Source: Smittium culicis
Taxonomy: Eukaryota; Kickxellomycota; Harpellomycetes; Harpellales; Legeriomycetaceae
DNA length: 32,207 bases
Assembly: GCA_001970855.1 (NCBI GenBank)
Contig: LSSN01002308.1
Span: forward strand, 1-32,207
Direction: 5' to 3'
Under the pieces are notes generated by a model that saw only the letters and a program-made list of their open reading frames with translations, was not told where the DNA came from and did no database searches. Below are positions 1,641-27,398 of this stretch, piece after piece. Position 1 is the first letter of the stretch. The number at the start of each line of letters is the position of its first letter. Made by a program: the position numbers and the translations under genes.

Positions 1641-1649
1641 AATGTACAG

Positions 1650-6691: not shown

Positions 6692-8533
6692 ATGTATCTT
6701 GGTAATGTTCTAAGTCGTGGAGTTTACTTTTCTCCGTCAGCTCTTCCTGCCAGAATTCTTTCTTTAAATATAAATCCTATCTCTTCCAACAAAATTCTTC
6801 ATCCTCTCCGCACTTTTAGTTCTTGTATCGTTTCTAAGCAGAAAAAAACTTCTCCACTTGGTATAAATACCTTTTCAAAATCTTCAAGATTCCTTTTTGT
6901 AAGCGAGAATTCCACCTTCAAAATATCTTCTGCAAAAATGGGACTAGTTCAAAGAGGATTCAGTAGCAACAAGTCTGATTCCAACGAAACTGATAACCTT
7001 AAACAAGATGACTCTAATAAAGGAAATGCCGCGAAAAAATCCAATTCTTATCTAAAAACTTTAATTTTTACTGGTTTAAGCGCTTCTTTATTAGGGTATT
7101 TATACTATAGTAGTTCTTTGAAACCCATAAACAAATTAAATGATTCATCAAAAGACTTCTCTTCCGTTTCAGCACATCTCGATCAAACTGACATTACTCC
7201 GCTCTTAAAAGAGGTCGAAAAACTACGTCATATAAGTTTAAATAAGATTTCTGAAATGCTAGATAATGGCGTTTCTCTAAAAAAAGCTGTAAAATCTGTA
7301 GAGCCACTTTCTGACGAGCTCATTGCGTCGATATACAAAGAAAAGGAAAATCACTCTATCCTTCATAATGTAAATAACAAGAATCAAAAATTAAAGCTAG
7401 ATATTTACTCAAACCAAGTCAGTTCAAATTCGCCAATTGAAGACTACATCATCTGGAAAGATATTAAGAATGCTGACAGCGGAAATTATATAAATAAACA
7501 GTTTTTCGGTGTGTTTGATGGGCATGCTGGATATATGTGTGCAGAAAAAATATCTAATCTCTTCCCCTCGCTTCTTGATACGGCCTATGCTGTTTCAAAT
7601 AATTTGCTTAACCCTAAAGATTCAATAAAAAATTCTGATTCCATAGAGTCCAGAATTTCTACAAAGATCAACAGCTACTCCTCTAGCAACCCTAATACCC
7701 TAAAGGACAATGAAAACGCAATCGTTTTATCTTCCTCTTTCGAATTAATGGACGAAATCGTCGTCTCTGACTCACTGAATAAGTTTTTGAGTCTAAAATC
7801 TGATGACGAAAAATCAAAAGAGTTTCACTCTTTACTTGGCCCCGCTGTTTCCGGAAGCTGTGGAATTGGATTAGTTTTAGATCAAAATGATTTGTCAATC
7901 ACTGTTGCTAACGTCGGAGACAGTAGAGCCATTCTAGGATCCAAGCTTAATACTGGTACTTGGAAATCAGTTGAATTGAGCGTTGATCAAACTGCTGATA
8001 ATCCTACTGAACTAAATCGAATAAAGAAGGAGCATCCAGGCGAAGAAAATACCGTCATTCAAAGAGGACGTGTCCTTGGTGGCCTTATGCCACTCCGTGC
8101 TTTTGGTGACTCGCGCTACAAATGGAAGCTAGATCATCAAAGGCTTCTCTTCCCTCTCCTTCTTAAAAATGGCCACAAGTATGCTACTACCCCAAAAAAT
8201 TACCTTTCTCCACCTTACGTAACTGCCAAGCCAATCATCGTTAAGCATAAAATTTCAAAGGATAATGATAAATTCATTGTCATGGCTACTGATGGTCTAT
8301 GGGACAGACTTTCTAATGAACAAGTTGTCGAGTTTATTGGAAAATGGATAGATGAAAATGGCCCTATCACCCAAAAGAATAATCCTTCTTCAAGTCTAAT
8401 CAATTATGCTCTAAAATATAATTACAATGAAAAATATGACGATAAAAGACCTAACCACCTCTTAGCAATCCCTTCCCCAGTTAGCAGAAGATATCGCGAT
8501 GATATCTCTGTATTTGTTGTTGTTCTAAACTAA
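6692..8533 (+). CDS. PTC5: Mitochondrial PP2C-family Ser/Thr phosphatase, Ptc5/PDP-like
   Basis: A 613-residue metal-dependent protein phosphatase. Metal- and phosphate-site motifs appear in order: SPIED (E250/D251), FGVFDGHAG (D276, G277), SGSCG (387-391), NVGDSRA (408-413), VDQTADNPTE (431-440), RAFGDSRYKWK (469-479), SPPYVTAKP (506-514), MATDGLWDRLS (531-541) and the final RDDIS (D603). The KWKLDH...SPPYVTAKP pattern and the length fit the yeast Ptc5 / pyruvate dehydrogenase phosphatase group, whose known role is dephosphorylating the PDH E1-alpha subunit. The N-terminus is Arg/Ser-rich with no acidic residue before E73. QRGFSS (87-92) looks like an R-3 processing site. One hydrophobic segment (about 121-142) could anchor the protein in the inner membrane, as in Ptc5. 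An Asn/Ser-rich insertion (about 305-345) follows the DGH motif. The start is the first ATG after an in-frame TAG at 6665. There are no introns. PDH as substrate is inferred from the family. Confidence 0.92.
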   Translation: MYLGNVLSRGVYFSPSALPARILSLNINPISSNKILHPLRTFSSCIVSKQKKTSPLGINTFSKSSRFLFVSENSTFKISSAKMGLVQRGFSSNKSDSNETDNLKQDDSNKGNAAKKSNSYLKTLIFTGLSASLLGYLYYSSSLKPINKLNDSSKDFSSVSAHLDQTDITPLLKEVEKLRHISLNKISEMLDNGVSLKKAVKSVEPLSDELIASIYKEKENHSILHNVNNKNQKLKLDIYSNQVSSNSPIEDYIIWKDIKNADSGNYINKQFFGVFDGHAGYMCAEKISNLFPSLLDTAYAVSNNLLNPKDSIKNSDSIESRISTKINSYSSSNPNTLKDNENAIVLSSSFELMDEIVVSDSLNKFLSLKSDDEKSKEFHSLLGPAVSGSCGIGLVLDQNDLSITVANVGDSRAILGSKLNTGTWKSVELSVDQTADNPTELNRIKKEHPGEENTVIQRGRVLGGLMPLRAFGDSRYKWKLDHQRLLFPLLLKNGHKYATTPKNYLSPPYVTAKPIIVKHKISKDNDKFIVMATDGLWDRLSNEQVVEFIGKWIDENGPITQKNNPSSSLINYALKYNYNEKYDDKRPNHLLAIPSPVSRRYRDDISVFVVVLN

Positions 8534-8771: not shown

Positions 8772-11700
8772 CTATTTTTCAATTAGTCTATTTAGCCATA
8801 AATACAGTGCATTTAAAATGCCTGAATTTAATAATGTAGTACTAGGTGTTATGTATTCGAAATGATCAGGTTCGTGTGTTGTATCTGTGCCGTTAAAAAG
8901 TGAATTCTTGTTATTACCATTTTCAGCTTTTTGGTTAACTACAAATAATCCACGGTTATTCAAATACACTTCCAGCTTTTTTCTTGACATTGGGTTATAC
9001 CCAATTGAGCCTGGGTAAAGAGGGTTGAAGTCCGACTCGTATTTTACAAGAAACGGACTAACTGGAGCATATCTTCTGAATAAGTCATCCCAAAACAAAT
9101 ACCATGCGAATCTTAAAGGATGTGGATTAACAAGAGGAGGCGAAACAGTATTTTTATTTTTATTAGTTTCTGGTTTTCGGAATCCAATCGCTTTAATCTT
9201 TGATGCTTTAGGATGTCTTTTGTTGGTTTGGTAGTTGATTTGCTTATGATCAAATATCTCGTTTATTTGTGGAATATTAATTTTATACTTGATGCTATAG
9301 TTATTAATAAGAGAAGGATTGTTAATATTACCAGTATAATCTGTAAGGGGTTTAAGCGTATCGCTAATAACAATATTTTTTAGACCTAACAAGTCAGTTA
9401 GTGCTTCTGGATCAAAAGGTGTAACTGATGGATCCCGAGGATGGAAATATGGCCGTATAGCATCTAATCTTTCGTATAGTGCTCTGAGGTCGTCATAGTG
9501 ATCGTTGATAAGATTTTTTAGACTTTGAGATTTTTCAAAAAGCTTCAAGATATAAACAAGCTCATGATAAGTTGGTAAAGAGTCTAATAGTGGCAATGAG
9601 TTTTCTGGCGTGGGCTTTGCTAAGTGACTGTAGTCTGGGTTACAGACAGATTGGTAATTATATCGAAGGTCGTTAAATAGTGAATCTCCATTTTCGAAGT
9701 TGTTATCTTTTAAAGAAGCATCAGTAGAAATATCAGTAAACGGTCCAATGTGAGACGATTCTTTAAAACAGGCAAACATTGAAGCTGCAATATACCAAGG
9801 TATAGACTCTGAGCTTAAAACATCATCTTGATCGATTTCAAGAATATCTTCATTTCCTTTTTGGATTTTATGGTCTACGTACCTAGAAAGGTTTTTACGT
9901 TTTTTTAATTTACTTTTTGCCAAGTTAGATAGGCTACTAGATAATACCGGGGACTTGATTGTTATTCCTTTAGTTGCTGGAGCTAGTTGTGGATGAGGAG
10001 AAAAAATAAAGTTGGTAAAGAAGTAGCTCAAGCCGTATTGCTTGTCAGAAAATTCGTATTCAAATTGAGATCTCCATAGTGAAAACCCGTCTTGAATCTT
10101 TTTAAAGTTTTTCAAGATTATCTCTTCATTCTCTTTTAGCAAAAAATATGTACTAAGTGACATAGTAAAGTCAGAGTTAATACCAAGAATCTTTGACTGA
10201 ATCTTAGATAATATCTGATATCTGTTGTTTCCAATATCCCATAGATTTGTCGATAATAGGTCAATATCTTCTCTTTTAATTTTCGGGTTATATCTCATGT
10301 AATTGTTAGCGCCATTATTTGGAACCATTTCGCTAACCACGCTGGCAGCCTCAGCAATAGATCCAGTTTTATTTGTAGGAATGTTATACGCGCTACTATT
10401 TTCGTTATGAGCATGGGGTGTGGTATTTGGAATATTACTATTTAAACCTTGCAAGCTAGTATTATTATTTAGCTCGCCTTTTTCAGATTCGAAATTGCTG
10501 TTTCTTATAATTTGGTTTTTGAAAAGATTAAAAGTAATGTTATCTTTATAATCAAATCCAGATTCTGCATCTTCTTTGTAGCCCAAATTAAGCCCAGATA
10601 AGATCTGGTCTTTGTAGCTATTCATAGATTCCATAGAAACGATTTCCCCCCTGTGGTTTATAACCATTTTTGTTGAATCGATAACATCGATTTTTACCAT
10701 AAATCCTGCGCTTGTATTAACCAAGTTGAAAATTGGGTTAACTCTAATATTTTTGGTATTTTCGTAATGGTGTCTTATTATAATCAGTTTGGCTTTAAAG
10801 ATAATGATTTTTTTAAAGCTACTATCAATCCCATCAATACTATTATCAAGCAAAGATATCTCTTGACTCCCTTCAGGCACACTATTTGTATTTTCGCCTA
10901 ATATCGATTGAGAGTTTTTGAGATCGTTTTCATCAAACGAAAAAGTAATAATTTCATTTTCCAATGATCTGAGCGATAACCTTAACCTTTTTCTGTCAAT
11001 GACTTCCGGGTTTCTGTTTTGTTGTAAGTAAATGTACCAACCAGAAAAGCTTCCAATACGAATAACATATCCTGGAGCTTCATCGTAAATGAAATACAAT
11101 ATAAATGGAAATGGGGTTACATATGCTTTACCAAACCAAGACTGTATTTTAAACTTTGTCTCTCCAAAGTCGTTATAGTCAACTATTCTTATTCCTGATT
11201 TATTAAAAGATTGGTTGGTGTGGTTAGATTTGGGCCGGTAATTAGAACTAATATCCATGGTTGCTATTGATTGATCAATGGGTATTCCTAATAAATTTTG
11301 GATTTCCAAGTCGTTAGATGGAGATAAAAAGTCTTGGTTTATGCTATTATAAACCTCCTTATAATCCTTAAAATTAGAGAGATCTGGGAAATAATTTTTT
11401 AATAAGGTTTGAGGAGGTTTGAAGTACATATCAGGTCCACAAAAGCTTGAGATTATCGCATTTTGTATATCGCGACACTCTGATGGAGTGTGTATTATGC
11501 GATCCAAACCAAATTTTAGATAGTCGCCATATAATTGATTGTCATTGTCGTTATTTGCTTGATAAGAATTATAACTTTGGTTAGCCTCTTGCTGATTATA
11601 GTTTTGATATCCTTCTGCTTGATAATAATTTTGGGTTGGTTGCGGGAAACTTATATTCTCAGATTGATCAGGGACATTGTTTTTGTTATATGGGTTGATA

Positions 11701-14700
11701 TTTTTTGTTGTAATAGGAGTAATAAGCTTATCAATATTATCCAAAAGTAACCTCTCTACAGTGCTGTTAAAGTAGTCCATGTAGCCTGTACAATTTAAAA
11801 TAAGTAAGTTTTCTAAGTGTCGCTCCGGAATATAGCCTTTGTACCCAACGTTATAAGGAGTTCTGATATTGACGTTTGAGTTCCCAGTGTTAGTGTGGGA
11901 AGATTCAAGCATTTCATTAGGCAGTTTTGTATTAGCGCTGTTTTCACCATAAACAACTTGGGTATTCAAGCTATTCGCTAATACCAAATTGAGCTCTTTT
12001 AAAACATCTTGATCAGAGTTAAAGTGGTGGTTGTTATGTTTATAGCCACTTACTGTAAACTGGTATGGATATACATCTAGGCGCTCATACCCTGCGCTAT
12101 TTCCTTCAATGCTGTTAATACTAACATGATGTGGTGCTATTAATGGGGGTAGTCTATTGTCCCGAGATGCCAAAAGAATAGCAGACCAAGTATCTTGCCA
12201 TATCCTTTCAACAGCGAGTCTATGTAAATTTAGATCATCAACCGAATTGGATGTCAAAATACCAGGAGAAAATTCAATTACTTGGAAAGAATCTTTGAGA
12301 AATTTTTTTGATATACTAAACGAACTCGAATCTCCAATAAATGGACCATAAGTCAGTAATTTTGCCATATATGAATTGCGATCAAATACAATCGGGTTAT
12401 TGGAATCGGCAGAATTGTTTATATTGCTTCTAAAATTATTTTTATTTAATTCGTTGTTATCAGAGGAAGAAAGTTCGCTGTCAATAGAGTTAGAGTCGAT
12501 TGTTGGAGAAGGTACATAATAAAATTTTTGATAGCAAGAGTTAGCAAATATGAGTAGCATAAATAGGATTGAGGAAAAGAAGATGACGCAAATAATGATA
12601 AAAAGAAGAGAAAAGAAGCTTGATTGATCAGAGTTTACAGGATCGCGAGAATCAAAGTAGCTACTGCCATTTTTAACAAGGATCCATGCAATAAACGAAA
12701 GAAATGATAATACCAACAATGTGAAATTTGAAATGAGTCCAGAAAAGTTTGCACTTGCATCAAAATAAGGCCGTTTTTTACAGAATGAGTGGAAGAATAA
12801 ATATGTTACAAGAATTATCAAAAGTTGTCGAAAAATATCAATTGATTCTACTTTCACTCTCAGTATTACTCCAGATAAATAATCAGTTATATGTAAAGAA
12901 GGCTTCGACCAGCAGTTTAAGCTGGAGAAAATTGCACATATCAATACTAAAGCGAACTTATAAGACATAGTATTTACAAATTCGCCGAGGTAATCAGGGT
13001 ATACATTTTCGTACAAGAATGAAAATTCAGATTCGTCATTATATAAGAGCTTTTCGTGAAGCTGAACCGCTGCGACTTGTTTAATTTTATTATAGAGTTC
13101 GTCATCTAAGTGCTCTGCTTTAATTTTTTTATACTGGCTGATCGGGTTAAAGTGCCCTAATTTTTGAAGTTTTGATTTTAGAGTGTCATGGTGTTTTTGA
13201 TAATCAGCGTTTTCTTTATTTAGCTCATCTAATAACAAAAGTCCAATTGGTGTTGAAGAAAGTGATGCAAACGGCGAGTTTATGAAAACCGAGTTAACTT
13301 TAGGAATTGATTTAATGATAATATTTTTGACGCTTCTTGGGAAATAAATTCCTAGGCTAAAAATGCATAGTAAGCTAATAAAAAATAATATAAATGTATA
13401 GTTGAAGCCATTAGTTGCGCCAGAGTTAATGGAGTCGTTGGAAATAAAAAAGTTGGTTTTATAACAGACCTTATAGGTAATGGTATCAGTTGTAAATAAT
13501 GCTTTGTAGATATTAACGTTCCAAAACTTAATTTGCCAAGTAATTAACTCAAAACACAGTTTCAAAGTTGGGAGATATAAGACATACATTACAAAAAATG
13601 CAAATTTTCTTCTAGAAATTTTATCAGGTAAGCTTTCACCAGAGAGAAAAGAATAAAAAGAAGTAAGAAATCTTTTTATAAAGTTTAATGATTTTGCAGC
13701 ATAGAAACGGTTAGAAAACGGGGATGAAAAAACATTCATAAATGGCATGTTTGATTGAAATGTTATAACGTTTAAATTTTCATTAGGGCCTTCGAATTTA
13801 TTAGACTCGAATTTTTCGTCAAATTCACCTAGAAAGATTTTTTTAGCTGAACCAGAATCGTATGTTTTAGCCGATCGTATAGATTTTTTGTTAAATTGGG
13901 TAGGTAGTTCTGAGGCAACATTTGATTGTAGTATATCATTAATTTGTTGTTTTACTTCTTTAAATAGCTCCTTTTCGAATTCAGGCGAGTTAAATAAGTT
14001 TTCAACATTTTTTGACCAACCACTTCCATCACTGCTAAAAATGTTGGCTTTTAGCTTAGAATCAGCCAGATTATCAAGCTCACTTTTCACGGTGCTATTA
14101 TATATTTTATGAGATGAATTTTCTGAAGTATTACTGAAAAAGTAAACAAAGGAATTCCTGAAAGACTTTTGGAAATCTCTAGAGTCCGATTTTAGTATAA
14201 TCCAATAGAAAATCATGAGTATAGTAACAAAAGAGAAAGATATTAAGAAATATGGACCATATTCTAGATTGTAAGAAATTAGGTCTGGAATCATAAAACC
14301 AAAAATATGGATGGGATATAAAAACAGCTGAAACCAAATATTAGAGTTACCAAACGGTTTAGGAGAGTCAAGATTTGATGGAAATTTGAATAAAGATGAA
14401 TCATCGATTGATGATTTAAAGTAATGAATTCCAATAGGCCCAACAATTAGTGCTAATATTTGAAAGAAATCTATAAGATTTAGAGAATGTATAAACACTC
14501 TGTCAATTCCCGGACCGCTGTGAATTTTGTTTTTTTTGGGTATACCTTTTGATTTTTCATTATTGTGGTAAAAAGCGAGAGTTTTAACAACAAGTTCCTT
14601 TATATTTTTGGTCTTGTTCTTAAGCATAGGCAATACAGAAAATGGAGATGCTAGTGTCAAAGATTTAGCAAAATTCCAAGAAGTTCCTGCTCCGCCCAAA

Positions 14701-17700
14701 GATACTTGAGGCGAATGTAAAATAATTTCAACCGCAAGATTAGAAATATGGCTAAATGGTGGAAACATTGTAAATTTTTTACTAAATGTACTCTGATCGT
14801 CAACTGTTACAGAATTTTCAGAGTTTTGGATATCAGAGCCTGCATTATCTGACGCTAGATCAAAGCTAGCTAGATTACGCTGCCTGACATTTTTTGTTTG
14901 TTTTTTATCTGGTTTATTTGAAATCCCTGCCTTTGTTTGGTTGATAATATCAATGGAATAACTTTTGCTCATTTCAATTCCGGGAGTCTTGTAAACTTCG
15001 GGATCAAGAACAATTTCGGGCGCTCTTTTGAACTTTTTTAGCTTAGAAAAACTAGCATGTCCTAAATTATCAAGGATTCTATCTAATTTTTTGAACTCCA
15101 TTCTATTTGAGTTAGGAAGAATATATTCTGGGTCAATATCTAAAATTTTTGCGGTTTTTGTAGACGCTAGAAGCCCAGCATCTGTTTTGTTTACACCTGA
15201 TAACATTGAAAAGCTACGAATTTTTTCTTTTTTAGGACCAGAATAAAATAAGTTATTAAAATCAATAAAAAGGATTTTTTTTGATAGCGAATTAGAAGAG
15301 TAGTACCACGATCCTATTGGAAGAGGAGAAATTCTAAAAATTCCTTTAATGGGATTTTCTTTGCTTTTAATCTTGTTAATGATGTAAATCGCAAAGATTA
15401 AAGCTCCACCTATCAATAGCTTGCCCAAATTTAACCAAAAACCACTACCTGACTCTTTAGAATCTTTTTTAGGTGGCGATGAGGAGTTGTTATTATCGCT
15501 TGGGGCATTGTTTTGTTGGTTGTTTGAAGAACCTGCACCTTCGTTGTTTTCATTTTTTTTAGAGTTTAATAAACTTCCTGCGCCAAGCATCCCTAGGGCA
15601 GCAGCTAAAGGACCTAGAGAAGTATATTTCGTTGAAGCTGCATTTAAAAGGTGTTGACCATTATCAACGTTAAAAATCTTTCCAAAAAATCCATTTCCCC
15701 CCGAGGGTTTGGATGAAGCTTGAGGAACACTTTCAGTATTAGCTGAATCAACCTTTGTAATATTTGGAATTTCCGAGATAACACTAGGAGCGTAATTAGG
15801 CTTATTAAAATTGTTTGGGTTATAACTAGATGTATGTTCTGGAAATACTGAATTTAGTTTGTTCAAGTTATGCGGGTTAATGGATGAAATTTTGAAAGGA
15901 TTCAAGTTTTCTTGTTGGATATAATTGTTTGGATCTGGATAGTCCATCCTAAAATTTGGGTCAATCATAGCAAAAATGTTTTGATGTGGCTTGTTTTCAG
16001 AGTTAGGTTCGTTATTGTCAGGAGATATGTATTTGGAGAAACTGGGCATTTGGATTCTGTTATATACATTTTGGGTTGGGTGTGTGTTTGAGTTGTGGCT
16101 TTGATTTTGATTAATGGAGCCCAAGGAATGCGATGGAAGGGTTGCAGGGAATGCGTAGATGTTTTGATGCGAGTTAATATTACCAGCATTTTGGTTTGAT
16201 GTAGGAATGAATTCATTTTTCACGTTTAAATTATTAGAGTCTTTGAGTTTATTTGAGCTATGTAGTGAAAAATTGCTAGCTGATAATTTATGAGAGTTAT
16301 TTGGGTTATTCGCGTTGTTGTTGAAATCGTGTATTTGAGTTGGTATATTTGAGTTAGCAGTTTCAGGATTATTATTTCTGTATGGAGAACCGAGTTTTTG
16401 ATGAGGTGGAATTATTAGAGTGTCAATGTTAACTTTAGCGATATCAGAGAATCTTTTTTGAAGTTTACCCATTTCCTCCTCAGTCATAGAGCTGTTAAGA
16501 GAACTACTAGTAAAATTGTTTTTAGTACCGGCTTGGATTTGATGTGTCGCAGGAGAGAACTTTGGTAATTTCTGCTTTGAAGGATCCTGGCTAATATTAT
16601 TTGCAGTTTGGTTTAAGGCAAGCAGCTTATTTACGGGCTTTTGAGAATTTTGGGTTCCTCCGCCTAAAATAGTTTGCCTAGAATTTGAAACTGAATTCAT
16701 ATTGTATAACAAGTTGTTATTTTGAGAATCATAATTATTGTTAAAATCGCCAGCTTCACCACTCTTTTTACTCAAGAATAAATTCTGCATGGGAATGTTA
16801 TCTTTAATATCGCTTTGAGGCATAGAGTTTTCATTCAGCAGCCCTACTGTAGATATTGGCCGGTTTTTAGTTTTTGATTTCGAGATGCGAAAAATCGACC
16901 TTACTTTACTTAACGCTTTTCCCCATATTGATTCATCTTGATGTCTAGCCTTAGAATAAGAGTTCATGTCCGCGCCTATACTTTGAACAAGGATGTCGTT
17001 ATCTTGGTTACTTTCACGAGAAAGTCTAACTGAGTTAAGCTCGCCTTCAACTCTGCCATAATTACGGCTATCTTTTCGTACTCTATGGTATGGCTTGGTA
17101 GAATTTTTATTTAATTTTGGGTCCTTGCCATTTTTTTTGGTTGAATTAAAAAAGTCGCTGTCAAAGAAGCTAGTATTGTCATAAGTAGCAGAAATAGCAG
17201 TTCTGGGTGATATGGGCACTACTTTCTTTCTGCGCTGTTGATTATCTTTAGATTGAATAGGATCTAAGGTGCTACCTTGAAGAGGCTGAGTATGCTGAAC
17301 AGAGATTTTGTCGTTTCTAGAGTTTAGTAAGTTACTCTGGTTTACAATTTCAGCAGGATTTGATTTGCTTCTTTCTCGTGAACCATTAATTTTGTTTGAA
17401 GAAATATTTGAGCGATTAGGGTTTGATAAAACTACATTATTGGGTGATGCTTTAAATGGACGAGAATTAAATGAATTCGGTACTGGAGGGACAGAAAATC
17501 TATTAGAGTTGGCGAATTGATGTTGGGCGTTGGAGTTGTAAAGATTATTAGGGCTAGGGTAGCTAACTGAATCAATAAATTCACTATTTTTTTCTCCAAT
17601 TGGTAGATTAGAAAGATTTACTGGAATATTATTAAAGTTATTTGGAGGAGGATTTTGGTTTGAACCGTTTATATTATTTCCACTGTTTATTGGAGGCGAA

Positions 17701-20700
17701 AAATGGTTTTGAGATAAATGAGTATTCGGAATATTGGGCAGACGAGAAAAGTCAGCAGGTTTGGTGTTATACGAAGGATAGCTTTCCCTTTTGTTTTTTG
17801 GAGATTTAATGCTAGATCCAGTTTGGATTGATGATAGCAATTCAATATGGTCTTTGTTAACAATACTTTTATCGAGTTGAGAAGATTTAGTAGCTATTGG
17901 ATGATATCGAGGGAGGTTTTTCAAATTGTCAATAGGCTTAATTAAGGGTGAAGTATTTTTTTCTAACGAGTCATCATCGTTGCTGGTAGAGGCAGTTTTT
18001 AATGCGGTGCTATAGCGCAAAGATGAAGGCGTTTTGGGTTGATTTGTATATTTAGAAATATTTAAATTAACAGAAGGTAAAGGCTTTTGATCAGTATTGG
18101 TAGAGGGGGTGAGATCAGGAGGCTGGATAGGTTTCGAGTTTGGTATAGCTGGTAGGGCAGCATATTTAGGTTCTTGTTTTGATTCAGTATTTTGGATTTG
18201 ATTTGGCGAATGAGGGTATTTTTGAAGGATAGTTTGATCGTTTTTGTTTTGATCGTCATAAAGATATCTCTGTTTGCTTTTATCAGTATCTTGGTTTGAA
18301 TATGAGTGAATTTGAGAATGGTCTAAACTAGTTTCAGGTTTAGTTTTAATAGGGCTTTCAAAATTTTTGGAGTTGATTTGGAAATCTTTTTCGGTAGGAG
18401 GATTATAATTATTTTTGGGTAAAGGACTAGGCGGTAAAGAATCGGTTTTATTCGGAGGACGTTTATAGCTTACAACTGGTTCAAGTTTTAGTATGTTGTC
18501 ATTGTTTGGGAGAGCGTAGGCATTTTCAATATTATTGTTGATATTTGATGGAGGTTGAAATTGATCTAACGTGACAATATTCTTACCTTGATCAAAAGTA
18601 GGATTTATTTTAGTTTTTGGAACAAATTTATTGGTTTTAGGAACCTTTGAAAAGTCTTCATAGTAGGGTAAAGGCTCGAACATGAGAGATGGTTTTTTCC
18701 TGCTTTCTAGAAATGCTTTTGGACTATTAGACAATTTTGACAGGCCAAATCCTTGAAACTTAGAATCTAAATTAGGGATATTCATAAGCCTACGTAATCG
18801 CTTGAATTTATTTAAAACTGATTTAATTGAGGGTCTTTTGTTTGATTTGAAAGCTGGTCTTGTTTTTGGAAAATATGGTGACATAAACTGTGGAGAATTT
18901 GGGTTTTTAACTAGCTCAGGAAAGAAGTGATTGCTTGGAAATGAATAAACGCGTTTATTTTTATTCTCGGAATTTCTATTGCCTCTTGGTTTGGCTTTTC
19001 TAGATTTAGCTAGTCTGATTGACTTTATAGTTTTAGGTAAAGGCTGGTTCCACCAATTTCCAGTCGAGTCAATTGAAAAGTTCTCAGATATTTTGGAGTT
19101 TGAATAGTTTGAGCTGTTCCTGCGTTTTGGCAAATTTGAAAAGTTTGAACTGTTTTTAGGATTTGGTAAATTTGAGTGATAGATAATCTTATCTGGGTTG
19201 AAGTTCCTTGAAGGCTTATTGCTAGTATAGTTACTGTCAAACTTATTGAAAAATGATTTTCGCTTAGGTTGGTTGAAGTAAGGGTAGGCTAATATCTTAG
19301 AATCCTTGCTGTTATTTTGCTTAAGGTTATTAAATACATCGTCTATATCAAACCCACTGTCAATAGAATATCTAGAATTAGCTCTGTTGATATTTTTTGG
19401 TTTAGCTGACCCCGGATTGAAATTTAGATCATTGAGATTGTAGGAATATAGGCTGTTTGAAGAGACTGTAGACCTTTGATTAATAGATGCTTTGCTATTT
19501 TTTTTATCATTGTATACTGGACTGCTCAAAGAGCTTGAGCTGTTTTCAGGAATTTTTGAGTTAGAAGTGTTAGAAGAATTAGAGGTTGAAGTTGATAAGG
19601 ATAAAGGTTTTTTTTTTTTAGAGTCTTCAGAATTAGATCGAGAGCCAAAGTCGTAAATAGATGATTGGTTAAAACTGCTATCATTGTTGCTGGGAGCCTG
19701 ATAGGAGTTGCTATCATTCGAATCGATGCTTGTTGGGTCTTGCGAACTATTGCTTGGACCATCATAATTTAAATTAGCGAAATTGTCGTTATAGAACTGA
19801 TTATTTTTTTGAAAATTTAAACTTACATTTTGGGATGTACTGATATCTTGCGGGCGATCCAATGCGCCTTCATACGAATATGAAATAATAGGGCTGTTAC
19901 CTAAGTTTAGAATGTTTTCTCTAACGGACTTGTCGTTATATAGCTTTTCATTTTCAGTCGACATTGCAAGAAGCTCTTTTTGTGCTCTTCTAATAAGTCT
20001 GTATCTCCATATCTGTCTAGTTTTACTTGAAGATTCCCAGTCAGATACTGGCGATTGGCTTGGGTCAAATCCATTTGCTGAAGAGGAGTTGGTTATATAC
20101 TTTAGCATATTCGTAGTGTTCGCCATAACAGGGGCATTGAAACCGAGTGGTGGTCTCTGGAAAAGAGATCCTTTTGACCATTTTTTAAGCTCTGAAATAG
20201 GAGTGATACCTAAATCCATATAAGGGCTATTAAGAACATCAGCTTGTTTTTTATCGCTCATGTCAACATTATTATCGGTAGGTTTTGGTATAAGATTAAA
20301 GTTGTTTTGATGAACGCCGCTATTGATATCGGAAGTCTTCAAATTGTTTCTTGATGGATGTTCAGAATAATCATTTGAATCTTTTAAGATTTTTTGGGAT
20401 TGAATTTTAGGCACACCAGTTATTGGAATACTAGTATGGTTATGTGTAGTATACACATCTTTGCTGTTACCATTTTTACTAAGCACCGAGGATAACTTTC
20501 CATTGCTACTGGGTCTTAACCCATCTTTATAGTTCTCAGCGTGCATAGCTATAGAATAATTTTGAGGATCTTTGGTATCAGCGTTTGATTTGCTTGAAGA
20601 GGCCTGAGAATTAGAAGAAATTTTAGAACCTGCGTGAGAAGACAAGGCTTTAGAAACCTTGTTTTTTTCAGCTAGAGATGATTCGACCCACATTTCGATG

Positions 20701-23700
20701 TTATCAGGATATTTTGGAGCTGGGCTATTTATCAAGTAATTTTGATTTCTGATCAGTGGTGTATTAGGATTGACGGGACTATTTATGAAAGGTGAAGTAT
20801 CAGCAAGAACTCTTGAAATACTGTCTGTAGTTTCTGTTTCTGCGATTGATTTCAAAATTGATATGGGTTTTTGGGGAGATAAAATCTGATGAGTATCTCT
20901 AGGATCAACAGAAGTGTCATTACGTGGGGCATCTTTAGTGTTTTTAGAGATAATTTCATTCGGAATTTTAGATTTACTGGTATGTATTGAATGATTTGTT
21001 GGATTAATTACATTCATAAACAGGGATTGATCTTGGCCAAGATTAGTAGAGAGTATTTTATTATCTTGAGACTGTGAACTATTGGCAAAGTTATTGATGG
21101 AATCTAAATAAGATTGGTCATGCACTTCTGTTGTGTTCAGATTTTGAAAGCTATTTTTATCAATTTTGATATCATTTTTGTTAGAGTGATCCTGAATAGC
21201 AGGAGTTTCATGTATATTTTCTGAACTGGGAACAATTTCAGATTTATTAGAAGCTTTGTCGCTATTATTTGAAATGCTTCGATTTTGAGTTTTATTATTA
21301 GTGGGCGTAATCTGCTCAATAGGTTTGGTAGATTGAAGTTTAGAGCTTGAGGTAGAAGATGTAAAGCTGGCTGACGGAGTTAGTTTTTGAATTTGGGGTT
21401 TTGAGGACGATAATTCGCTCTTTGATAAGTTAGACTCGATTATGTCGCGTGTTTTTGAAACGACTTGAGTTTTGATGAACTTTTGGGATTTTCTCTGACC
21501 TCTTTTAAGAATTTCGGATTCAATCTTTTTTTGTAATTGATCAGCTACATTTTTTTCCCAGTTTTCACTAGTAGATTTAACGTTTATTGAGATAGGCGGG
21601 ATTTTTGCCTTTGATGGAGATATAACGATGTTTGAAGAAACGATGGCACTTTGAGAATCAGAAATTATGCTGGAGCTCTTATCTTTTAAGCTATTAGAGG
21701 AAGTAATGGGCTTGGATTCAGATTGACTAACTTTTAAATCAGCAGACTTAAATTCTAATGACGGGGCAGGGGATTCTATATTGCTCTTTAGTGAGCTGTG
21801 CTTCGAAGATTTATTACTGTTTTTGATTTTCAGCATAGATAAATCTTGTTGGATGTTGAAGTTCTTATCGTTAAAGCTTTCAATTTTGGAGACTTTAGAA
21901 GATGGGTAGCTCATTCTTGAAGATTTTTTTGATCCTTTTTTGCGAGATTTTGATGAGGCAATTGAGGAAGTAGTTGAATTGATGTTACTTTTTTGGATTT
22001 CAATTTGTTTTAGAAATATCTTTTGTGAGCTAAGCCTTGAAACTGCGTCGCTGTTCTTTGATTCTGAGTTAGCATTTGAAAAGGGAGATACATTCTGTGA
22101 TGCAGGTATGTAATTCTTAGAGTTGGATGAAAGTGGGTGGCTATGATTTGATTTAGGGGTAATTTCTTTTGGATACGATTCAGGGGCATGAGCAATTTGA
22201 ATTGGGGTTTTGGGATTGTCTATTTGATTTGGATCTAAAGTAAGGTCTCTTTGTAACTCAATTTTGTTGGAGGCGAAAGAAACGCTTTGAGAGTTTTTAG
22301 ATTCCGACAAATGGGATTGTGATTTAGAAATCTTTGGGTGATTGGAGTCATTTTGGTGTTTTTTTAGAGATGAATTATATGATTTGGGTGAAATATCAAT
22401 TGAGATTTGGCTAGCTTTTTGGGAAGGGTGAGAATCACTATTTAGAGGGTGACTAGGGTGTTTTTTTGAGTTTTGTGATATGTTTGAAGAAGATGGAAGT
22501 CGGCTTAGAGAAGATTTGAAAGAATCTGAAGAGCTTTCAGATGACGAGTTATTTGGCGGGTGTAGTGGATATGTACCGCTGATGATAAGGGGATTGATTT
22601 TTTGGTTTGAGAATAGGTTTGATTGCTGGTTTAGAGCATGATCAATAACGGGGATATTAGGGACATCATTTGATGGGGGTGTTGGAATTCTGGGACTAAG
22701 ATAAGATTGAGTATTAGATTGAGGGTTTATTTCTGGGTTTTCGAGTTTAGAATGGGGATCATCTTTGTTTTCAGGGACGATAGAATTATTTTGGAGAGGT
22801 AATGGTAATTTAGGTAATGGGCGATTAGGGATTGAATGAATTGGGGTTTTACCTATTAAATTATCTTTGTTATCGGGAATATCATTATTTCTTAAGGGTA
22901 AAAGATGGGACATGTTGTTGTTATTAAAATTGGATTGGGTGTGGCTTGATGATGCGTCGCTTAACCGCTTTCTTACAGGGGCAGATGGTAGTGGTTTGAA
23001 GTACTTTGAGTTAATGACATTTGAGGGGTTTGATTTTGATTTGCTGTGGGAAAACGGGTGATTTAAAGTACTTTTTTTTGAATCTGAGTGAACAAGATTA
23101 GAATTCTTGCTTATAATATCGTTTAGGTTATTAATTTGGTTTTGATATTTGAGATTATTGCGATTATCAGAGGCAGAACTTGAGCTATGAGATTTGGTTG
23201 ACGTAGCAGTAGGGAGTGCACTGCTGTTGATTTTTTGGTGTGTATCTGCGCTTTTAGTATTATTGAACAAAGTATGTTGTTTGGAGGTATTATCGTGGGG
23301 GATATTAGAGGTAGATGATATATTCAAAAGTTGATTAAAGTTAGAATCGTTTGGGTTTGGGAATGAGATTTGAGGGATATTTGGATTATTTGAATTTGGA
23401 CTTGGGATAGAGAAAGAGGACGAAGAGTTAAAATAGTTGTTATTGACTTTGAAAATTCCAAGCTCAGCGAGTTGGTCGGTACTTGCAGTATGCTGGGTAT
23501 TTAGGTTGCTATTAAAACTTTTATTAGAAGAGTTATATGTCATCGAAGCCTTGTCAGAGTTTGCATCGGGGCCAGGAATTTTAGAGACATGGTTTCCAAG
23601 TAAGTAGTTCATGTATTCACTTTGTTCAGAATTTTCTTGTTTGTTCATTAGGATATTATGATTATTTTGGAAGTTATTATTGAGAAACTGATGTTGAAGC

Positions 23701-23993
23701 AACTGTTGTTGTTGTTGTTGGATTATTCGCTGCTGCTGATCGTTCTGAAACTGTATCCGTTGTTGTGTTTGCTGTTGGCTTTGTTGTCGAAGCTGTTGTT
23801 GGTTTTGAGGGGGATATGAGGTGATTTGGTTGATGGGGTCTATAGGGTAGGCAGGATACAGGGGTGCATTGTATTTTTTCTGATTTAGCGGGATATTGGT
23901 AGTGGTTGAGGGTTTGGGAATACCTTGGTTGGTATTTTCTTTGTTATTGCTAGCATTTGAGCTGCCACTAGACTCAGACCTTGAGCCTGGCAT
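8772..23993 (-). CDS. Giant 5,073-aa multi-spanning membrane protein with a huge disordered N-terminus; family not recognised
   Basis: One uninterrupted frame of 5,073 codons, ATG at 23993 (first ATG after an in-frame TAG at 24069-24071), TAG stop at 8772-8774. I do not recognise the family. Residues 1 to about 2,850 are Ser/Asn/Pro/Lys/Gln-rich and probably disordered. They hold a Gln-rich tract (63-102), a proline motif PLPSAPVRKR (334-343) resembling an SH3 ligand, a possible helix (about 806-850), a less simple island with aromatic and basic residues (about 1257-1345), and a basic cluster (about 1650-1740). Hydrophobic segments suggest helices at about 2858-2876, 3175-3193, 3219-3236, 3248-3266, 3464-3484, 3532-3551, 3678-3695, 3719-3736, 3755-3773 and 3793-3817. 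Residues 3830-5073 alternate folded-looking sequence with Asn/Ser-rich loops, including a Gln/Asn/Tyr-rich tract (about 4112-4158). The last about 110 residues (FAWYLFWDDLFRRY onward) look well conserved in character. There is no clear signal peptide. A membrane-anchored scaffold, channel or sensor are all possible; none is shown. Confidence 0.93.
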   Translation of the reverse strand: MPGSRSESSGSSNASNNKENTNQGIPKPSTTTNIPLNQKKYNAPLYPAYPIDPINQITSYPPQNQQQLRQQSQQQTQQRIQFQNDQQQRIIQQQQQQLLQHQFLNNNFQNNHNILMNKQENSEQSEYMNYLLGNHVSKIPGPDANSDKASMTYNSSNKSFNSNLNTQHTASTDQLAELGIFKVNNNYFNSSSSFSIPSPNSNNPNIPQISFPNPNDSNFNQLLNISSTSNIPHDNTSKQHTLFNNTKSADTHQKINSSALPTATSTKSHSSSSASDNRNNLKYQNQINNLNDIISKNSNLVHSDSKKSTLNHPFSHSKSKSNPSNVINSKYFKPLPSAPVRKRLSDASSSHTQSNFNNNNMSHLLPLRNNDIPDNKDNLIGKTPIHSIPNRPLPKLPLPLQNNSIVPENKDDPHSKLENPEINPQSNTQSYLSPRIPTPPSNDVPNIPVIDHALNQQSNLFSNQKINPLIISGTYPLHPPNNSSSESSSDSFKSSLSRLPSSSNISQNSKKHPSHPLNSDSHPSQKASQISIDISPKSYNSSLKKHQNDSNHPKISKSQSHLSESKNSQSVSFASNKIELQRDLTLDPNQIDNPKTPIQIAHAPESYPKEITPKSNHSHPLSSNSKNYIPASQNVSPFSNANSESKNSDAVSRLSSQKIFLKQIEIQKSNINSTTSSIASSKSRKKGSKKSSRMSYPSSKVSKIESFNDKNFNIQQDLSMLKIKNSNKSSKHSSLKSNIESPAPSLEFKSADLKVSQSESKPITSSNSLKDKSSSIISDSQSAIVSSNIVISPSKAKIPPISINVKSTSENWEKNVADQLQKKIESEILKRGQRKSQKFIKTQVVSKTRDIIESNLSKSELSSSKPQIQKLTPSASFTSSTSSSKLQSTKPIEQITPTNNKTQNRSISNNSDKASNKSEIVPSSENIHETPAIQDHSNKNDIKIDKNSFQNLNTTEVHDQSYLDSINNFANSSQSQDNKILSTNLGQDQSLFMNVINPTNHSIHTSKSKIPNEIISKNTKDAPRNDTSVDPRDTHQILSPQKPISILKSIAETETTDSISRVLADTSPFINSPVNPNTPLIRNQNYLINSPAPKYPDNIEMWVESSLAEKNKVSKALSSHAGSKISSNSQASSSKSNADTKDPQNYSIAMHAENYKDGLRPSSNGKLSSVLSKNGNSKDVYTTHNHTSIPITGVPKIQSQKILKDSNDYSEHPSRNNLKTSDINSGVHQNNFNLIPKPTDNNVDMSDKKQADVLNSPYMDLGITPISELKKWSKGSLFQRPPLGFNAPVMANTTNMLKYITNSSSANGFDPSQSPVSDWESSSKTRQIWRYRLIRRAQKELLAMSTENEKLYNDKSVRENILNLGNSPIISYSYEGALDRPQDISTSQNVSLNFQKNNQFYNDNFANLNYDGPSNSSQDPTSIDSNDSNSYQAPSNNDSSFNQSSIYDFGSRSNSEDSKKKKPLSLSTSTSNSSNTSNSKIPENSSSSLSSPVYNDKKNSKASINQRSTVSSNSLYSYNLNDLNFNPGSAKPKNINRANSRYSIDSGFDIDDVFNNLKQNNSKDSKILAYPYFNQPKRKSFFNKFDSNYTSNKPSRNFNPDKIIYHSNLPNPKNSSNFSNLPKRRNSSNYSNSKISENFSIDSTGNWWNQPLPKTIKSIRLAKSRKAKPRGNRNSENKNKRVYSFPSNHFFPELVKNPNSPQFMSPYFPKTRPAFKSNKRPSIKSVLNKFKRLRRLMNIPNLDSKFQGFGLSKLSNSPKAFLESRKKPSLMFEPLPYYEDFSKVPKTNKFVPKTKINPTFDQGKNIVTLDQFQPPSNINNNIENAYALPNNDNILKLEPVVSYKRPPNKTDSLPPSPLPKNNYNPPTEKDFQINSKNFESPIKTKPETSLDHSQIHSYSNQDTDKSKQRYLYDDQNKNDQTILQKYPHSPNQIQNTESKQEPKYAALPAIPNSKPIQPPDLTPSTNTDQKPLPSVNLNISKYTNQPKTPSSLRYSTALKTASTSNDDDSLEKNTSPLIKPIDNLKNLPRYHPIATKSSQLDKSIVNKDHIELLSSIQTGSSIKSPKNKRESYPSYNTKPADFSRLPNIPNTHLSQNHFSPPINSGNNINGSNQNPPPNNFNNIPVNLSNLPIGEKNSEFIDSVSYPSPNNLYNSNAQHQFANSNRFSVPPVPNSFNSRPFKASPNNVVLSNPNRSNISSNKINGSRERSKSNPAEIVNQSNLLNSRNDKISVQHTQPLQGSTLDPIQSKDNQQRRKKVVPISPRTAISATYDNTSFFDSDFFNSTKKNGKDPKLNKNSTKPYHRVRKDSRNYGRVEGELNSVRLSRESNQDNDILVQSIGADMNSYSKARHQDESIWGKALSKVRSIFRISKSKTKNRPISTVGLLNENSMPQSDIKDNIPMQNLFLSKKSGEAGDFNNNYDSQNNNLLYNMNSVSNSRQTILGGGTQNSQKPVNKLLALNQTANNISQDPSKQKLPKFSPATHQIQAGTKNNFTSSSLNSSMTEEEMGKLQKRFSDIAKVNIDTLIIPPHQKLGSPYRNNNPETANSNIPTQIHDFNNNANNPNNSHKLSASNFSLHSSNKLKDSNNLNVKNEFIPTSNQNAGNINSHQNIYAFPATLPSHSLGSINQNQSHNSNTHPTQNVYNRIQMPSFSKYISPDNNEPNSENKPHQNIFAMIDPNFRMDYPDPNNYIQQENLNPFKISSINPHNLNKLNSVFPEHTSSYNPNNFNKPNYAPSVISEIPNITKVDSANTESVPQASSKPSGGNGFFGKIFNVDNGQHLLNAASTKYTSLGPLAAALGMLGAGSLLNSKKNENNEGAGSSNNQQNNAPSDNNNSSSPPKKDSKESGSGFWLNLGKLLIGGALIFAIYIINKIKSKENPIKGIFRISPLPIGSWYYSSNSLSKKILFIDFNNLFYSGPKKEKIRSFSMLSGVNKTDAGLLASTKTAKILDIDPEYILPNSNRMEFKKLDRILDNLGHASFSKLKKFKRAPEIVLDPEVYKTPGIEMSKSYSIDIINQTKAGISNKPDKKQTKNVRQRNLASFDLASDNAGSDIQNSENSVTVDDQSTFSKKFTMFPPFSHISNLAVEIILHSPQVSLGGAGTSWNFAKSLTLASPFSVLPMLKNKTKNIKELVVKTLAFYHNNEKSKGIPKKNKIHSGPGIDRVFIHSLNLIDFFQILALIVGPIGIHYFKSSIDDSSLFKFPSNLDSPKPFGNSNIWFQLFLYPIHIFGFMIPDLISYNLEYGPYFLISFSFVTILMIFYWIILKSDSRDFQKSFRNSFVYFFSNTSENSSHKIYNSTVKSELDNLADSKLKANIFSSDGSGWSKNVENLFNSPEFEKELFKEVKQQINDILQSNVASELPTQFNKKSIRSAKTYDSGSAKKIFLGEFDEKFESNKFEGPNENLNVITFQSNMPFMNVFSSPFSNRFYAAKSLNFIKRFLTSFYSFLSGESLPDKISRRKFAFFVMYVLYLPTLKLCFELITWQIKFWNVNIYKALFTTDTITYKVCYKTNFFISNDSINSGATNGFNYTFILFFISLLCIFSLGIYFPRSVKNIIIKSIPKVNSVFINSPFASLSSTPIGLLLLDELNKENADYQKHHDTLKSKLQKLGHFNPISQYKKIKAEHLDDELYNKIKQVAAVQLHEKLLYNDESEFSFLYENVYPDYLGEFVNTMSYKFALVLICAIFSSLNCWSKPSLHITDYLSGVILRVKVESIDIFRQLLIILVTYLFFHSFCKKRPYFDASANFSGLISNFTLLVLSFLSFIAWILVKNGSSYFDSRDPVNSDQSSFFSLLFIIICVIFFSSILFMLLIFANSCYQKFYYVPSPTIDSNSIDSELSSSDNNELNKNNFRSNINNSADSNNPIVFDRNSYMAKLLTYGPFIGDSSSFSISKKFLKDSFQVIEFSPGILTSNSVDDLNLHRLAVERIWQDTWSAILLASRDNRLPPLIAPHHVSINSIEGNSAGYERLDVYPYQFTVSGYKHNNHHFNSDQDVLKELNLVLANSLNTQVVYGENSANTKLPNEMLESSHTNTGNSNVNIRTPYNVGYKGYIPERHLENLLILNCTGYMDYFNSTVERLLLDNIDKLITPITTKNINPYNKNNVPDQSENISFPQPTQNYYQAEGYQNYNQQEANQSYNSYQANNDNDNQLYGDYLKFGLDRIIHTPSECRDIQNAIISSFCGPDMYFKPPQTLLKNYFPDLSNFKDYKEVYNSINQDFLSPSNDLEIQNLLGIPIDQSIATMDISSNYRPKSNHTNQSFNKSGIRIVDYNDFGETKFKIQSWFGKAYVTPFPFILYFIYDEAPGYVIRIGSFSGWYIYLQQNRNPEVIDRKRLRLSLRSLENEIITFSFDENDLKNSQSILGENTNSVPEGSQEISLLDNSIDGIDSSFKKIIIFKAKLIIIRHHYENTKNIRVNPIFNLVNTSAGFMVKIDVIDSTKMVINHRGEIVSMESMNSYKDQILSGLNLGYKEDAESGFDYKDNITFNLFKNQIIRNSNFESEKGELNNNTSLQGLNSNIPNTTPHAHNENSSAYNIPTNKTGSIAEAASVVSEMVPNNGANNYMRYNPKIKREDIDLLSTNLWDIGNNRYQILSKIQSKILGINSDFTMSLSTYFLLKENEEIILKNFKKIQDGFSLWRSQFEYEFSDKQYGLSYFFTNFIFSPHPQLAPATKGITIKSPVLSSSLSNLAKSKLKKRKNLSRYVDHKIQKGNEDILEIDQDDVLSSESIPWYIAASMFACFKESSHIGPFTDISTDASLKDNNFENGDSLFNDLRYNYQSVCNPDYSHLAKPTPENSLPLLDSLPTYHELVYILKLFEKSQSLKNLINDHYDDLRALYERLDAIRPYFHPRDPSVTPFDPEALTDLLGLKNIVISDTLKPLTDYTGNINNPSLINNYSIKYKINIPQINEIFDHKQINYQTNKRHPKASKIKAIGFRKPETNKNKNTVSPPLVNPHPLRFAWYLFWDDLFRRYAPVSPFLVKYESDFNPLYPGSIGYNPMSRKKLEVYLNNRGLFVVNQKAENGNNKNSLFNGTDTTHEPDHFEYITPSTTLLNSGILNALYLWLNRLIEK
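19104..19175 (-). repeat. Tandem 36-bp duplication inside the giant gene
   Basis: Two adjacent 36-bp units, 19140-19175 and 19104-19139, match at 28 of 36 positions. They encode two 12-residue units, residues 1607-1618 (SNLPNPKNSSNF) and 1619-1630 (SNLPKRRNSSNY), followed by the start of a third (SNSK). The duplication is in frame and lies just ahead of the basic cluster. Confidence 0.85.
19608..19619 (-). repeat. Coding A12 homopolymer in the giant gene
   Basis: Twelve consecutive T on the + strand give A12 in the mRNA, read as four lysines in SKKKKPL. The long frame stays open across it. A run this long in coding sequence is a recognised site for polymerase slippage and for sequencing error. 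Confidence 0.8.
23688..23807 (-). repeat. Glutamine-codon-rich tract (polyQ-like) near the N-terminus
   Basis: Residues 63-102 of the giant protein are mostly glutamine, broken by Arg, Ser, Ile, Leu and Asn. The DNA mixes CAA and CAG codons, so it is not a pure trinucleotide array. Such tracts are commonly disordered and self-associating. Confidence 0.85.
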
Positions 23994-26090: not shown

Positions 26091-27398
26091 TTATGGCTTG
26101 CGGTGAGTGAGCGTAGCAGACGCTTGGCCATTAGGGAATACCGTCATACTGGAAATTTCGACGTGTGAAGGCCTAGAAGTCGTAAACATGCACAGCTCTG
26201 CGATATCTTGAGCTGTTAATGGATCGATTCCTCTGTAAATCCCATCTGCCTTTTGCTTATCCCCTCTGAACCTGATAACTGAAAACTCTGTCTCTACCAT
26301 CCCGGGATCTATTTGCGTGAGCCTGACACTTGTCTCCACTAGCTCGCATCTCAATGCTTGTGATATTGCCCGGACCGCAAATTTGGATGCGCAGTAAACT
26401 GATCCGTTCATATACGCCTCTTGCCCTTTTTTATTAAATTATTTATTTATTTATTTATTTCGAGTTTTTTTTACAAACAATAAAATGTGCTTTTAGTCGA
26501 ATAATATATCATTCAATTATAATATATCATTATTAATCACATCTCTATATAATAAAAAAATCTCAAAAATTACCTGCGATTGAGCCTATATTAACGATAT
26601 GGCCGTTAGTTCGCTTCAAGACTGGTAGAACTTGTTGCGTGCAATAAATAAGCCCCTTGACATTTGTATCCAGCATAGTATCAATATCTGCTGCTGAATA
26701 CGTCTCCAACGGCTCAAGCCCAACAACAAGTCCCGCATTGTTGATAAGAATATCAATATCCTTAAACTCATCTGGTAATTCGCTAACTACCTGCTTCACA
26801 TTATCGAGATTCCTCACATCAAGCTGCGCAGTATGGACCTTTAAGCTTTTGTTTTTTGACTTGAGCTCCTGTGATATTTCATTCAATCTCTCAACCCTTC
26901 GACCAGTAATAACCTATTTTTCATAAAATGCAATCAAAATTAAATAAAAAAATCCTTTAGTATTATATATTAATAAACTGCTTCCAAAAGCTATAAAAAT
27001 TAAAAAAAAACGTTTCAAAACTTACTATTTTAGCTCCTGAATTTGCATAATTGTACGCACAGGCTCTACCAATCCCTGAAGTTGCGCCAGTTCTAAGATT
27101 TGCCAATACAGCAAAAAAAAAAAAAAAATTTAAACTATATTTATATGTCTTTTTTTTCAATTTTAGGATTCTTTAACTGTTTTATAATTATTCTAATATA
27201 CTATGCTTGTGTTGGTTTAATTTAACGCTTTGCTTACATGAATACTGTCTTATTTTTTAGCCTTGAGAATGGATTGAACAAGTCATTGTTGCTCGAGTAA
27301 AACTTTTTGTTGATGTACTCGGCGCTTGAATCGCGTGTGAAAAGTGATTTTAAATTAACAGATATTTTTGTATTGAAAGCCGACTTTAGCCTAAACAT
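26091..27398 (-). CDS. Short-chain dehydrogenase/reductase (YMR226C-like), four exons, probable mitochondrial presequence
   Basis: Assembled as complement(join(26091..26425, 26574..26913, 27026..27092, 27238..27398)), 903 nt, 300 aa. The introns (145, 112 and 148 bp) start GTAAGC, GTAAGT and GTAATT, all end in AG, and their phases match. The product is a classical NAD(P)-dependent SDR: cofactor loop TGATSGIG (55-62), GRR after strand 2 (80-82, which favours NADPH), NNAG (134-137), and the catalytic set N160, S187 (in GSIAG), Y200 and K204 (YCASK), then DPGMVETEFS (229-238). Overall pattern, including GQAS near the end, follows yeast YMR226C, which oxidises 3-hydroxy acids and L-allo-threonine/serine-type substrates with NADP. 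The first about 45 residues (MFRLKSAFNTKIS...) are basic and hydroxylated, with KFYSS (32-36) as a possible cleavage site, so mitochondrial import is likely. The start is the first ATG after in-frame stops. The substrate is not decided by sequence. Confidence 0.91.
26441..26460. repeat. (ATTT)5 microsatellite in the third intron of the SDR gene
   Basis: Five ATTT units on the + strand, inside the intron at 26426-26573. It lies 14 bp from the 3' splice site and on the coding strand contributes the A-rich sequence before the acceptor. Confidence 0.85.

What the first reader, a model, noticed from the sequence alone, without database searches (positions are those of the whole stretch)
8772..23993. 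A 15.2-kb single-exon gene for an unrecognised 5,073-residue membrane protein
The frame is open for 5,073 codons in AT-rich DNA, where stops should be frequent, so it is under strong coding constraint. The neighbouring SDR gene has three introns in 1.3 kb, yet this one has none. I can match no part of it to a known family: the hydrophobic core and the last 1,250 residues look folded, but show no motif I know.
Basis: partly seen in the sequence, partly recalled or inferred. Interest (0 to 1): 0.75.

Follow-up and report, generated by a model that had tools for sequence, protein, structure and literature searches.

The report
Giant undescribed membrane protein of fungi
A single uninterrupted 15-kb gene in an insect-gut fungus encodes a real, conserved, very large membrane protein that fits no described protein family tested here and whose job is still unknown.

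Summary
Confirmed: an open frame of 5,073 codons, on the MINUS strand, 8772-23993; chance about 10^-187 at window composition. The gene is deposited as hypothetical protein AYI70_g6532 of Smittium culicis. The deposited model removes a 63-nt "intron" whose 21 residues align with S. mucronatum coding sequence, so the single-exon reading is better.

It is not an orphan: relatives occur in Furculomyces, S. mucronatum, a second S. culicis entry and 16 Coemansia clusters. The last 1,998 residues hold 169 invariant columns across 15 proteins. Anatomy: cysteine-free Ser/Asn-rich tail (1-2830), 8 family-averaged hydrophobic segments, conserved C-terminal part. 280 residues of a Coemansia homologue's C-terminal part fold confidently but match nothing in PDB. 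No Pfam, NCBIfam or PDB sequence family.

Best mechanism (inferred, 0.33): a membrane-anchored scaffold or sensor whose tail recruits SH3 proteins through a recurrent [KR]PLPxxP motif (9 of 10 tails). Topology evidence is mixed. Relatives outside Harpellales and Coemansia could not be tested well. Function remains open.

The parts
8772..23993 (-). Single-exon gene, 5,073 aa (P0001); deposited as AYI70_g6532
15504..23993 (-). Residues 1-2830: low-complexity Ser/Asn/Pro/Lys-rich tail, no cysteine, no hydrophobic segment, presumed disordered and cytosolic
   Evidence: composition; 0 Cys and first hydrophobic segment at 2854; disorder and sidedness inferred
22977..22997 (-). Residues 333-339 KPLPSAP, class-I SH3-ligand-like motif
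   Evidence: S. mucronatum has KPLPYIP in a similar context; the motif occurs in 9 of 10 tails; chosen after viewing the sequences
22803..22823 (-). Residues 391-397 RPLPKLP, second SH3-ligand-like motif
16847..16909 (-). 63-nt stretch removed as an intron in the deposited model; most likely coding (residues 2362-2382)
   Evidence: aligns with S. mucronatum and, less closely, Furculomyces residues; exact boundaries are my reading
15378..15434 (-). Residues 2854-2872: hydrophobic segment seen in P0001 and Furculomyces, not in the two Coemansia members tested
14985..15137 (-). Residues 2953-3003: juxtamembrane motif shared with Coemansia
   Evidence: hhalign probability 70, E 4.1e-5
12546..14480 (-). 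Residues 3172-3816: membrane region with 8 hydrophobic segments in the average of both clades (3172-3192, 3249-3267, 3467-3485, 3533-3551, 3672-3690, 3720-3738, 3754-3772, 3794-3816) and a doubtful one at 3216-3235
   Evidence: family-averaged hydropathy; flanking charges; the deposited Furculomyces protein lacks the 3672-3690 segment
10050..11474 (-). Residues about 4174-4648: equivalent (with Harpellales insertions) of the domain predicted with confidence in the Coemansia homologue
   Evidence: model m8f0b1dd5bcd8 residues 101-380, mapped through alignment A3; no fold match
8946..9119 (-). Residues 4959-5016: conserved C-terminal block (FAWYLFWDDLFRRY ... FNPLYP), 51% identical to Coemansia over 59 residues

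Best explanation
The gene encodes one giant polytopic membrane protein of an undescribed family shared by Harpellales and Coemansia. SHOWN: one continuous conserved gene; a long low-complexity cysteine-free tail; about 8 membrane-type segments; a conserved C-terminal region with one confidently predicted domain; no known family match. INFERRED: tail and C-terminal part both face the cytosol, the protein is anchored in the plasma or an internal membrane, and it works as a scaffold or sensor: the tail recruits SH3-domain proteins (polarity, actin or osmostress type) through the recurrent [KR]PLPxxP motif, while the membrane core and the C-terminal domain sense or bind a partner or ligand.
For: Single gene and coding constraint. 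Conserved family; 169 invariant columns of 2,617 in 15 proteins. Membrane segments. Topology: 4 K/R on the left of 3467 and on the right of 3267 and 3551 in P0001; 0 left against 4 right at the last segment of Coemansia P0010. Tail: 0 Cys in 2,830 residues, no hydrophobic segment before 2854. SH3-like motif: [RK]PLPxxP in 9 of 10 tails examined, 1-2 copies against an expectation of 0.0-0.1; 16 of 20 PLPxxP preceded by K/R against 11% background, and one in the same alignment column in 7 of 7 Coemansia tails. KPLPPLP is the canonical type-I Sho1-SH3 ligand in yeast Pbs2 (PMC12505296, passages).
Against: No interaction, localisation or expression data. The motif was picked after seeing the sequences, the tails are related so copies are not independent, and Furculomyces lacks it; general class-I and class-II SH3 patterns are not consistently enriched. 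Flanking charges are mixed: P0001 2854-2872 has 3 K/R on the tail side and 5 on the other; the loop after 3672-3690, outside in my topology, is the more positive side in Coemansia (3 against 1); the last segment of P0001 is 1 against 1. At the stricter cut-off the two Coemansia sequences tested show only six segments, and the deposited Furculomyces protein lacks one of the eight. The membrane region did not fold confidently. No known scaffold family matched.
Confidence: 0.33

Rival explanations
1. The membrane core is an ion channel or transporter, and the giant tail and C-terminal domain are its regulatory parts.
Confidence: 0.25
2. It is a very divergent member of a described or wider fungal family that the present searches cannot reach.
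For: The Coemansia-query search failed to return the known Harpellales relatives, and scored only the 1,521 candidates sharing most words; one search scored only 7,991. No AlphaFold DB library was available.
Against: Pfam (24,736 models), NCBIfam, PDB sequences with a profile, and PDB folds with a confident domain gave no family.
Confidence: 0.25
3. It is a surface or wall-associated giant protein with the Ser/Asn-rich tail outside the cell, like a fungal adhesin or wall-stress sensor.
For: 68 N-glycosylation-type sequons in residues 1-2850, though such a composition gives many by chance; the charge difference at 2854-2872 (3 against 5) slightly favours an outer tail; gut commensals are said to rely on adhesion anchors (PMC5954228, abstract).
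Against: No hydrophobic segment before residue 2854, so no signal peptide seen; tail has no cysteine; SH3-like motif recurs; the family also occurs in Coemansia, which is not an insect-gut commensal (recalled).
Confidence: 0.11
4. The frame is an artefact: several genes joined, or a degenerate or mis-assembled region.
For: S. mucronatum is annotated as two proteins: P0004 matches residues 114-348 and 1049-3469 by BLAST, P0022 matches 3577-3660 and 3804-5070, so about 107 and 143 residues of the membrane region are missing. P0021 matches only 3767-5073.
Confidence: 0.03

Closest known systems
Hypothetical proteins of Harpellales and Coemansia (BB559_005759, AYI68_g3881 + g3880, AYI69_g9174, H4217_001769 and others)
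   Same: Homologous along the membrane and C-terminal regions; Furculomyces 35% over residues 2714-5071, P0021 89% over 3767-5073.
   Different: Named only as hypothetical proteins; Coemansia tails are shorter and align with the Smittium tail only in short motifs.
Fungal osmosensor/scaffold systems of the Sho1-Pbs2 type
   Same: A signalling protein using a [KR]PLPxxP class-I SH3 ligand (Pbs2 KPLPPLP, PMC12505296 passages).
   Different: Sho1 is a four-TM protein (PMC4411306, abstract start in the listing) and itself carries the SH3 domain; here there are about 8 segments, the ligand motif rather than the domain, and no sequence relation.
TRP-type channels
   Same: Several membrane segments followed by a C-terminal part.
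   Different: No Pfam match; short gap between the last two segments.

Membership tests
Undescribed family (this gene and P0003-P0022) | Conserved membrane region plus C-terminal WQDTWSAI, ERHLEN, GPD.Y, FG and FWDD..RRY blocks | tested here: met
TRP-type channel | Pore loop between the last two transmembrane segments | tested here: inconclusive
   About 23 (Smittium) or 11 (Coemansia) residues between the last two segments, but limits come from hydropathy alone and no model of this part is reliable
TRP-type channel | Match to a Pfam TRP model | tested here: not met
   No such match listed at E up to 10 in 5 members (HMMER filters drop most above 0.1) or up to 1 in P0003 and P0005
Pecanex | Match to the Pfam Pecanex C-terminal model (name recalled) | tested here: not met
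   not listed
Sho1 osmosensor | Four transmembrane segments and an SH3 domain | tested here: not met
   8 averaged segments, no SH3 match in Pfam
Wall-stress or mucin-type sensor (features recalled) | Signal peptide, Ser-rich exterior part, one transmembrane segment | tested here: not met
   No hydrophobic segment before residue 2854 and several after it
SH3-ligand scaffold | Physical binding of an SH3 domain through the motif | not testable with these tools
   Only the motif's recurrence was counted
Any solved fold for the C-terminal domain | Significant structural match to a PDB chain | tested here: inconclusive

The most novel reading that the evidence does not exclude
A fungal membrane-protein family that no library tried here describes: a giant disordered cytosolic tail with SH3-ligand motifs, an 8-10-segment membrane core, and a cytosolic domain of a new fold, kept since the common ancestor of Harpellales and Coemansia and therefore serving a core cellular role such as osmotic or cell-wall sensing.
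Probability: 0.28. Interest if true: 0.68.

Novelty: new variant of a known kind. Interest (0 to 1): 0.45.

Why it matters
A 15-kb uninterrupted reading frame in an AT-rich genome proves to be a conserved gene shared by gut-dwelling Harpellales and Coemansia, yet it matched no family or structure library tried. Its membrane core and well-predicted cytosolic domain are concrete targets for asking what large, apparently non-enzymatic membrane machinery early-diverging fungi have. It also shows automatic annotation going wrong on giant genes: a false intron in S. culicis and a gene split in two in S. mucronatum.

Tried and rejected
Early guesses from memory (Pecanex, Meckelin, TRP, a wider Dikarya family) found no support in Pfam or PDB sequences; the Dikarya guess rests on recall only and could not be tested. 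The first structure model (1,130 aa, A2) was poor, pLDDT 48, and its fold matches are noise. Fold searches of the better model found nothing significant in PDB, in VIA-align's second look, or in predicted viral proteins; absence from these lists does not show a new fold. Bacterial/archaeal and viral contigs: 21 and 44 pattern matches, none confirmed. The own genome searched with tail DNA gave, besides itself, two weak matches on C1440 (71% over about 100 bases, not inspected). NCBIfam listed three weak families, each in 1 of 13 members, best E 0.0082 'SWFGD domain'. Family-averaged hydropathy also listed 4295-4313 just over the cut-off; I took it as strands of the confident domain. Literature: five locus names in 0 papers; I saw only the listed rows (15, 15 and 10 of 268, 2,215 and 42 papers) and none was about this family. 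Read: outline with abstract and section 6 of PMC5954228, passages of PMC12505296; the others only as listings. PHROGs and PADLOC were not searched. After re-checking the calls I lowered the best explanation from 0.37 to 0.33 and the novel case from 0.30 to 0.28, and raised the surface rival from 0.08 to 0.11, because the flanking charges are mixed and Furculomyces lacks one segment.

Full report
OBSERVATION. The window is contig C1297 of a 56.3-Mb assembly. Its protein is deposited as 'hypothetical protein AYI70_g6532 [Smittium culicis]' on a contig of the same length, 32,207. The frame runs from 23993 to 8772 on the minus strand, 5,073 codons. It is far beyond chance: about 10^-187 with the window's base composition and 10^-152 with its own; the other five frames hold 238-662 stops. 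It begins with ATG, with an in-frame stop 26 codons upstream. A protein search of the held assembly with the last 1,619 residues found only itself; that assembly is smaller than the published ones (77.12 and 71.05 Mb; PMC5954228 section 6), so single copy is likely but not certain.

INTRONS. The deposited protein has 5,052 residues and differs only by the loss of 21 residues, 2362-2382, i.e. a 63-nt in-frame GT...AG stretch (boundaries are my reading). In S. mucronatum these residues align closely (SKVRSIFRISKSKTKNRPISTVGLL against TKLNNIFHFSKPKKKGRPISTIGLL) and in Furculomyces loosely. The neighbouring gene is indeed a split short-chain dehydrogenase.

FAMILY. Three protein searches returned, besides the gene itself: Furculomyces boomerangus 4,952 aa; S. 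mucronatum 3,245 aa (AYI68_g3881) and 1,318 aa (AYI68_g3880); S. culicis AYI69_g9174 (1,308 aa, residues 3767-5073, 89% identical); and 16 Coemansia clusters. The two S. mucronatum proteins have consecutive locus tags and the same longest contig length (18,769). By BLAST they cover residues 114-348 and 1049-3469, and 3577-3660 and 3804-5070, leaving about 107 and 143 residues of the membrane region in neither. One gene, broken in annotation, assembly or fact, is the simplest reading. Furculomyces is 35% identical over residues 2714-5071. Across 15 proteins (P0001, P0003, P0005-P0017; the partial P0004 and P0018-P0022 and the deposited copy P0002 were left out) the part from MFPPFSH to the end has 169 invariant columns of 2,617. 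The search is not sensitive: the Coemansia-query search did not return the Harpellales relatives, so absence elsewhere in fungi means little. Prokaryotic and viral contigs gave no confirmed relative.

KNOWN FAMILIES. No Pfam family passes its cut-off in the three pieces of P0001, in P0003 or P0005, or in five members scanned at E up to 10; the best was a meaningless E 0.025. (P0011 alone has USP8-dimer-like and rhodanese-like stretches, just below cut-off, at its own N-terminus.) NCBIfam listed three weak families, each in 1 of 13 members. PDB sequences gave nothing below E 0.75 for the single protein or E 1.6 for the profile.

ANATOMY. Residues 1-2800 are Ser 16.7%, Asn 14.0%; residues 1-2830 have no cysteine and no hydrophobic segment. 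Tails of three Harpellales and seven Coemansia align significantly only at residues 2953-3003 (hhalign probability 70, E 4.1e-5); a stretch near 1247-1339 is suggestive only (E 0.11). Averaged over both clades at a cut-off of 1.1, eight hydrophobic segments are shared. At the stricter single-sequence cut-off of 1.6 the two Coemansia proteins tested show six. P0001 and Furculomyces have one more at 2854-2872; 3216-3235 is doubtful. The deposited Furculomyces protein lacks the 3672-3690 segment, which may be a false intron or a real difference. Flanking charges are mixed. For a cytosolic C-terminus and tail: 4 K/R to the left of 3467 and to the right of 3267 and 3551, and 0 against 4 at the last Coemansia segment. 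Against or neutral: 3 on the tail side and 5 on the other side of 2854-2872; more charge after than before the 3672-3690 segment; 1 against 1 at the last P0001 segment. Without a signal peptide a 2,850-residue tail should stay cytosolic (established knowledge), which with a cytosolic C-terminus needs an even number: 8, or 10 here if both extra segments are real. This is inference.

MECHANISM. The one functional clue is a motif. [RK]PLPxxP occurs once or twice in 9 of 10 tails tested, expected 0.0-0.1 by shuffling; Furculomyces lacks it. Not counted: P0007, P0008, P0013-P0015 (taken as close relatives of counted ones; not measured for all), P0011 (fused model), partial P0018-P0020, and P0021-P0022 (no tail). 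Of 20 PLPxxP sites in the ten tails 16 follow K or R (background 11%), and in 7 of 7 Coemansia tails one lies in the same alignment column. I noticed the motif before counting it, and the tails are related, so the numbers are descriptive. In yeast, KPLPPLP of Pbs2 is the type-I ligand of the Sho1 SH3 domain (PMC12505296, passages). The broader class-I and class-II patterns are not consistently enriched. I therefore favour a membrane-anchored scaffold or sensor that recruits SH3 proteins, at 0.33, over a channel or transporter (0.25): the last two segments are only about 23 or 11 residues apart, short for a TRP-type pore loop, but segment limits are approximate.

VERDICT. The result is a conserved undescribed family, not an orphan, with a gene model better than the deposited one. 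Its function stays open, and wider fungal relatives could not be excluded.

Noticed in passing
window 379-705 (+): A 108-residue open piece resembling a reverse transcriptase (Pfam RVT_1 E 0.0023, below the cut-off) amid stops: probably a decayed retroelement.
   Followed up: partly
window 6692-8533 (+): Intact 613-aa PP2C-type phosphatase, E 5e-43, convergent with the giant gene.
   Followed up: partly
window 16847-16909 (-): Deposited gene model AYI70_g6532 removes a 63-nt stretch that is conserved coding sequence in S. mucronatum.
   Followed up: yes
P0004 and P0022 (S. mucronatum AYI68_g3881, g3880): Probably one gene annotated as two; about 107 and 143 residues of the membrane region are in neither model.
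   Followed up: partly
P0003 (Furculomyces BB559_005759): The deposited protein lacks the hydrophobic segment equivalent to P0001 3672-3690: false intron or real loss.
   Followed up: no
P0011 (Coemansia sp. RSA 990), residues 173-539: Model starts with a USP8-dimer-like and a rhodanese-like stretch, just below the Pfam cut-offs: perhaps a neighbouring gene fused in the annotation.
   Followed up: no
window 26091-27443 (-): Short-chain dehydrogenase gene in several exons.
   Followed up: partly
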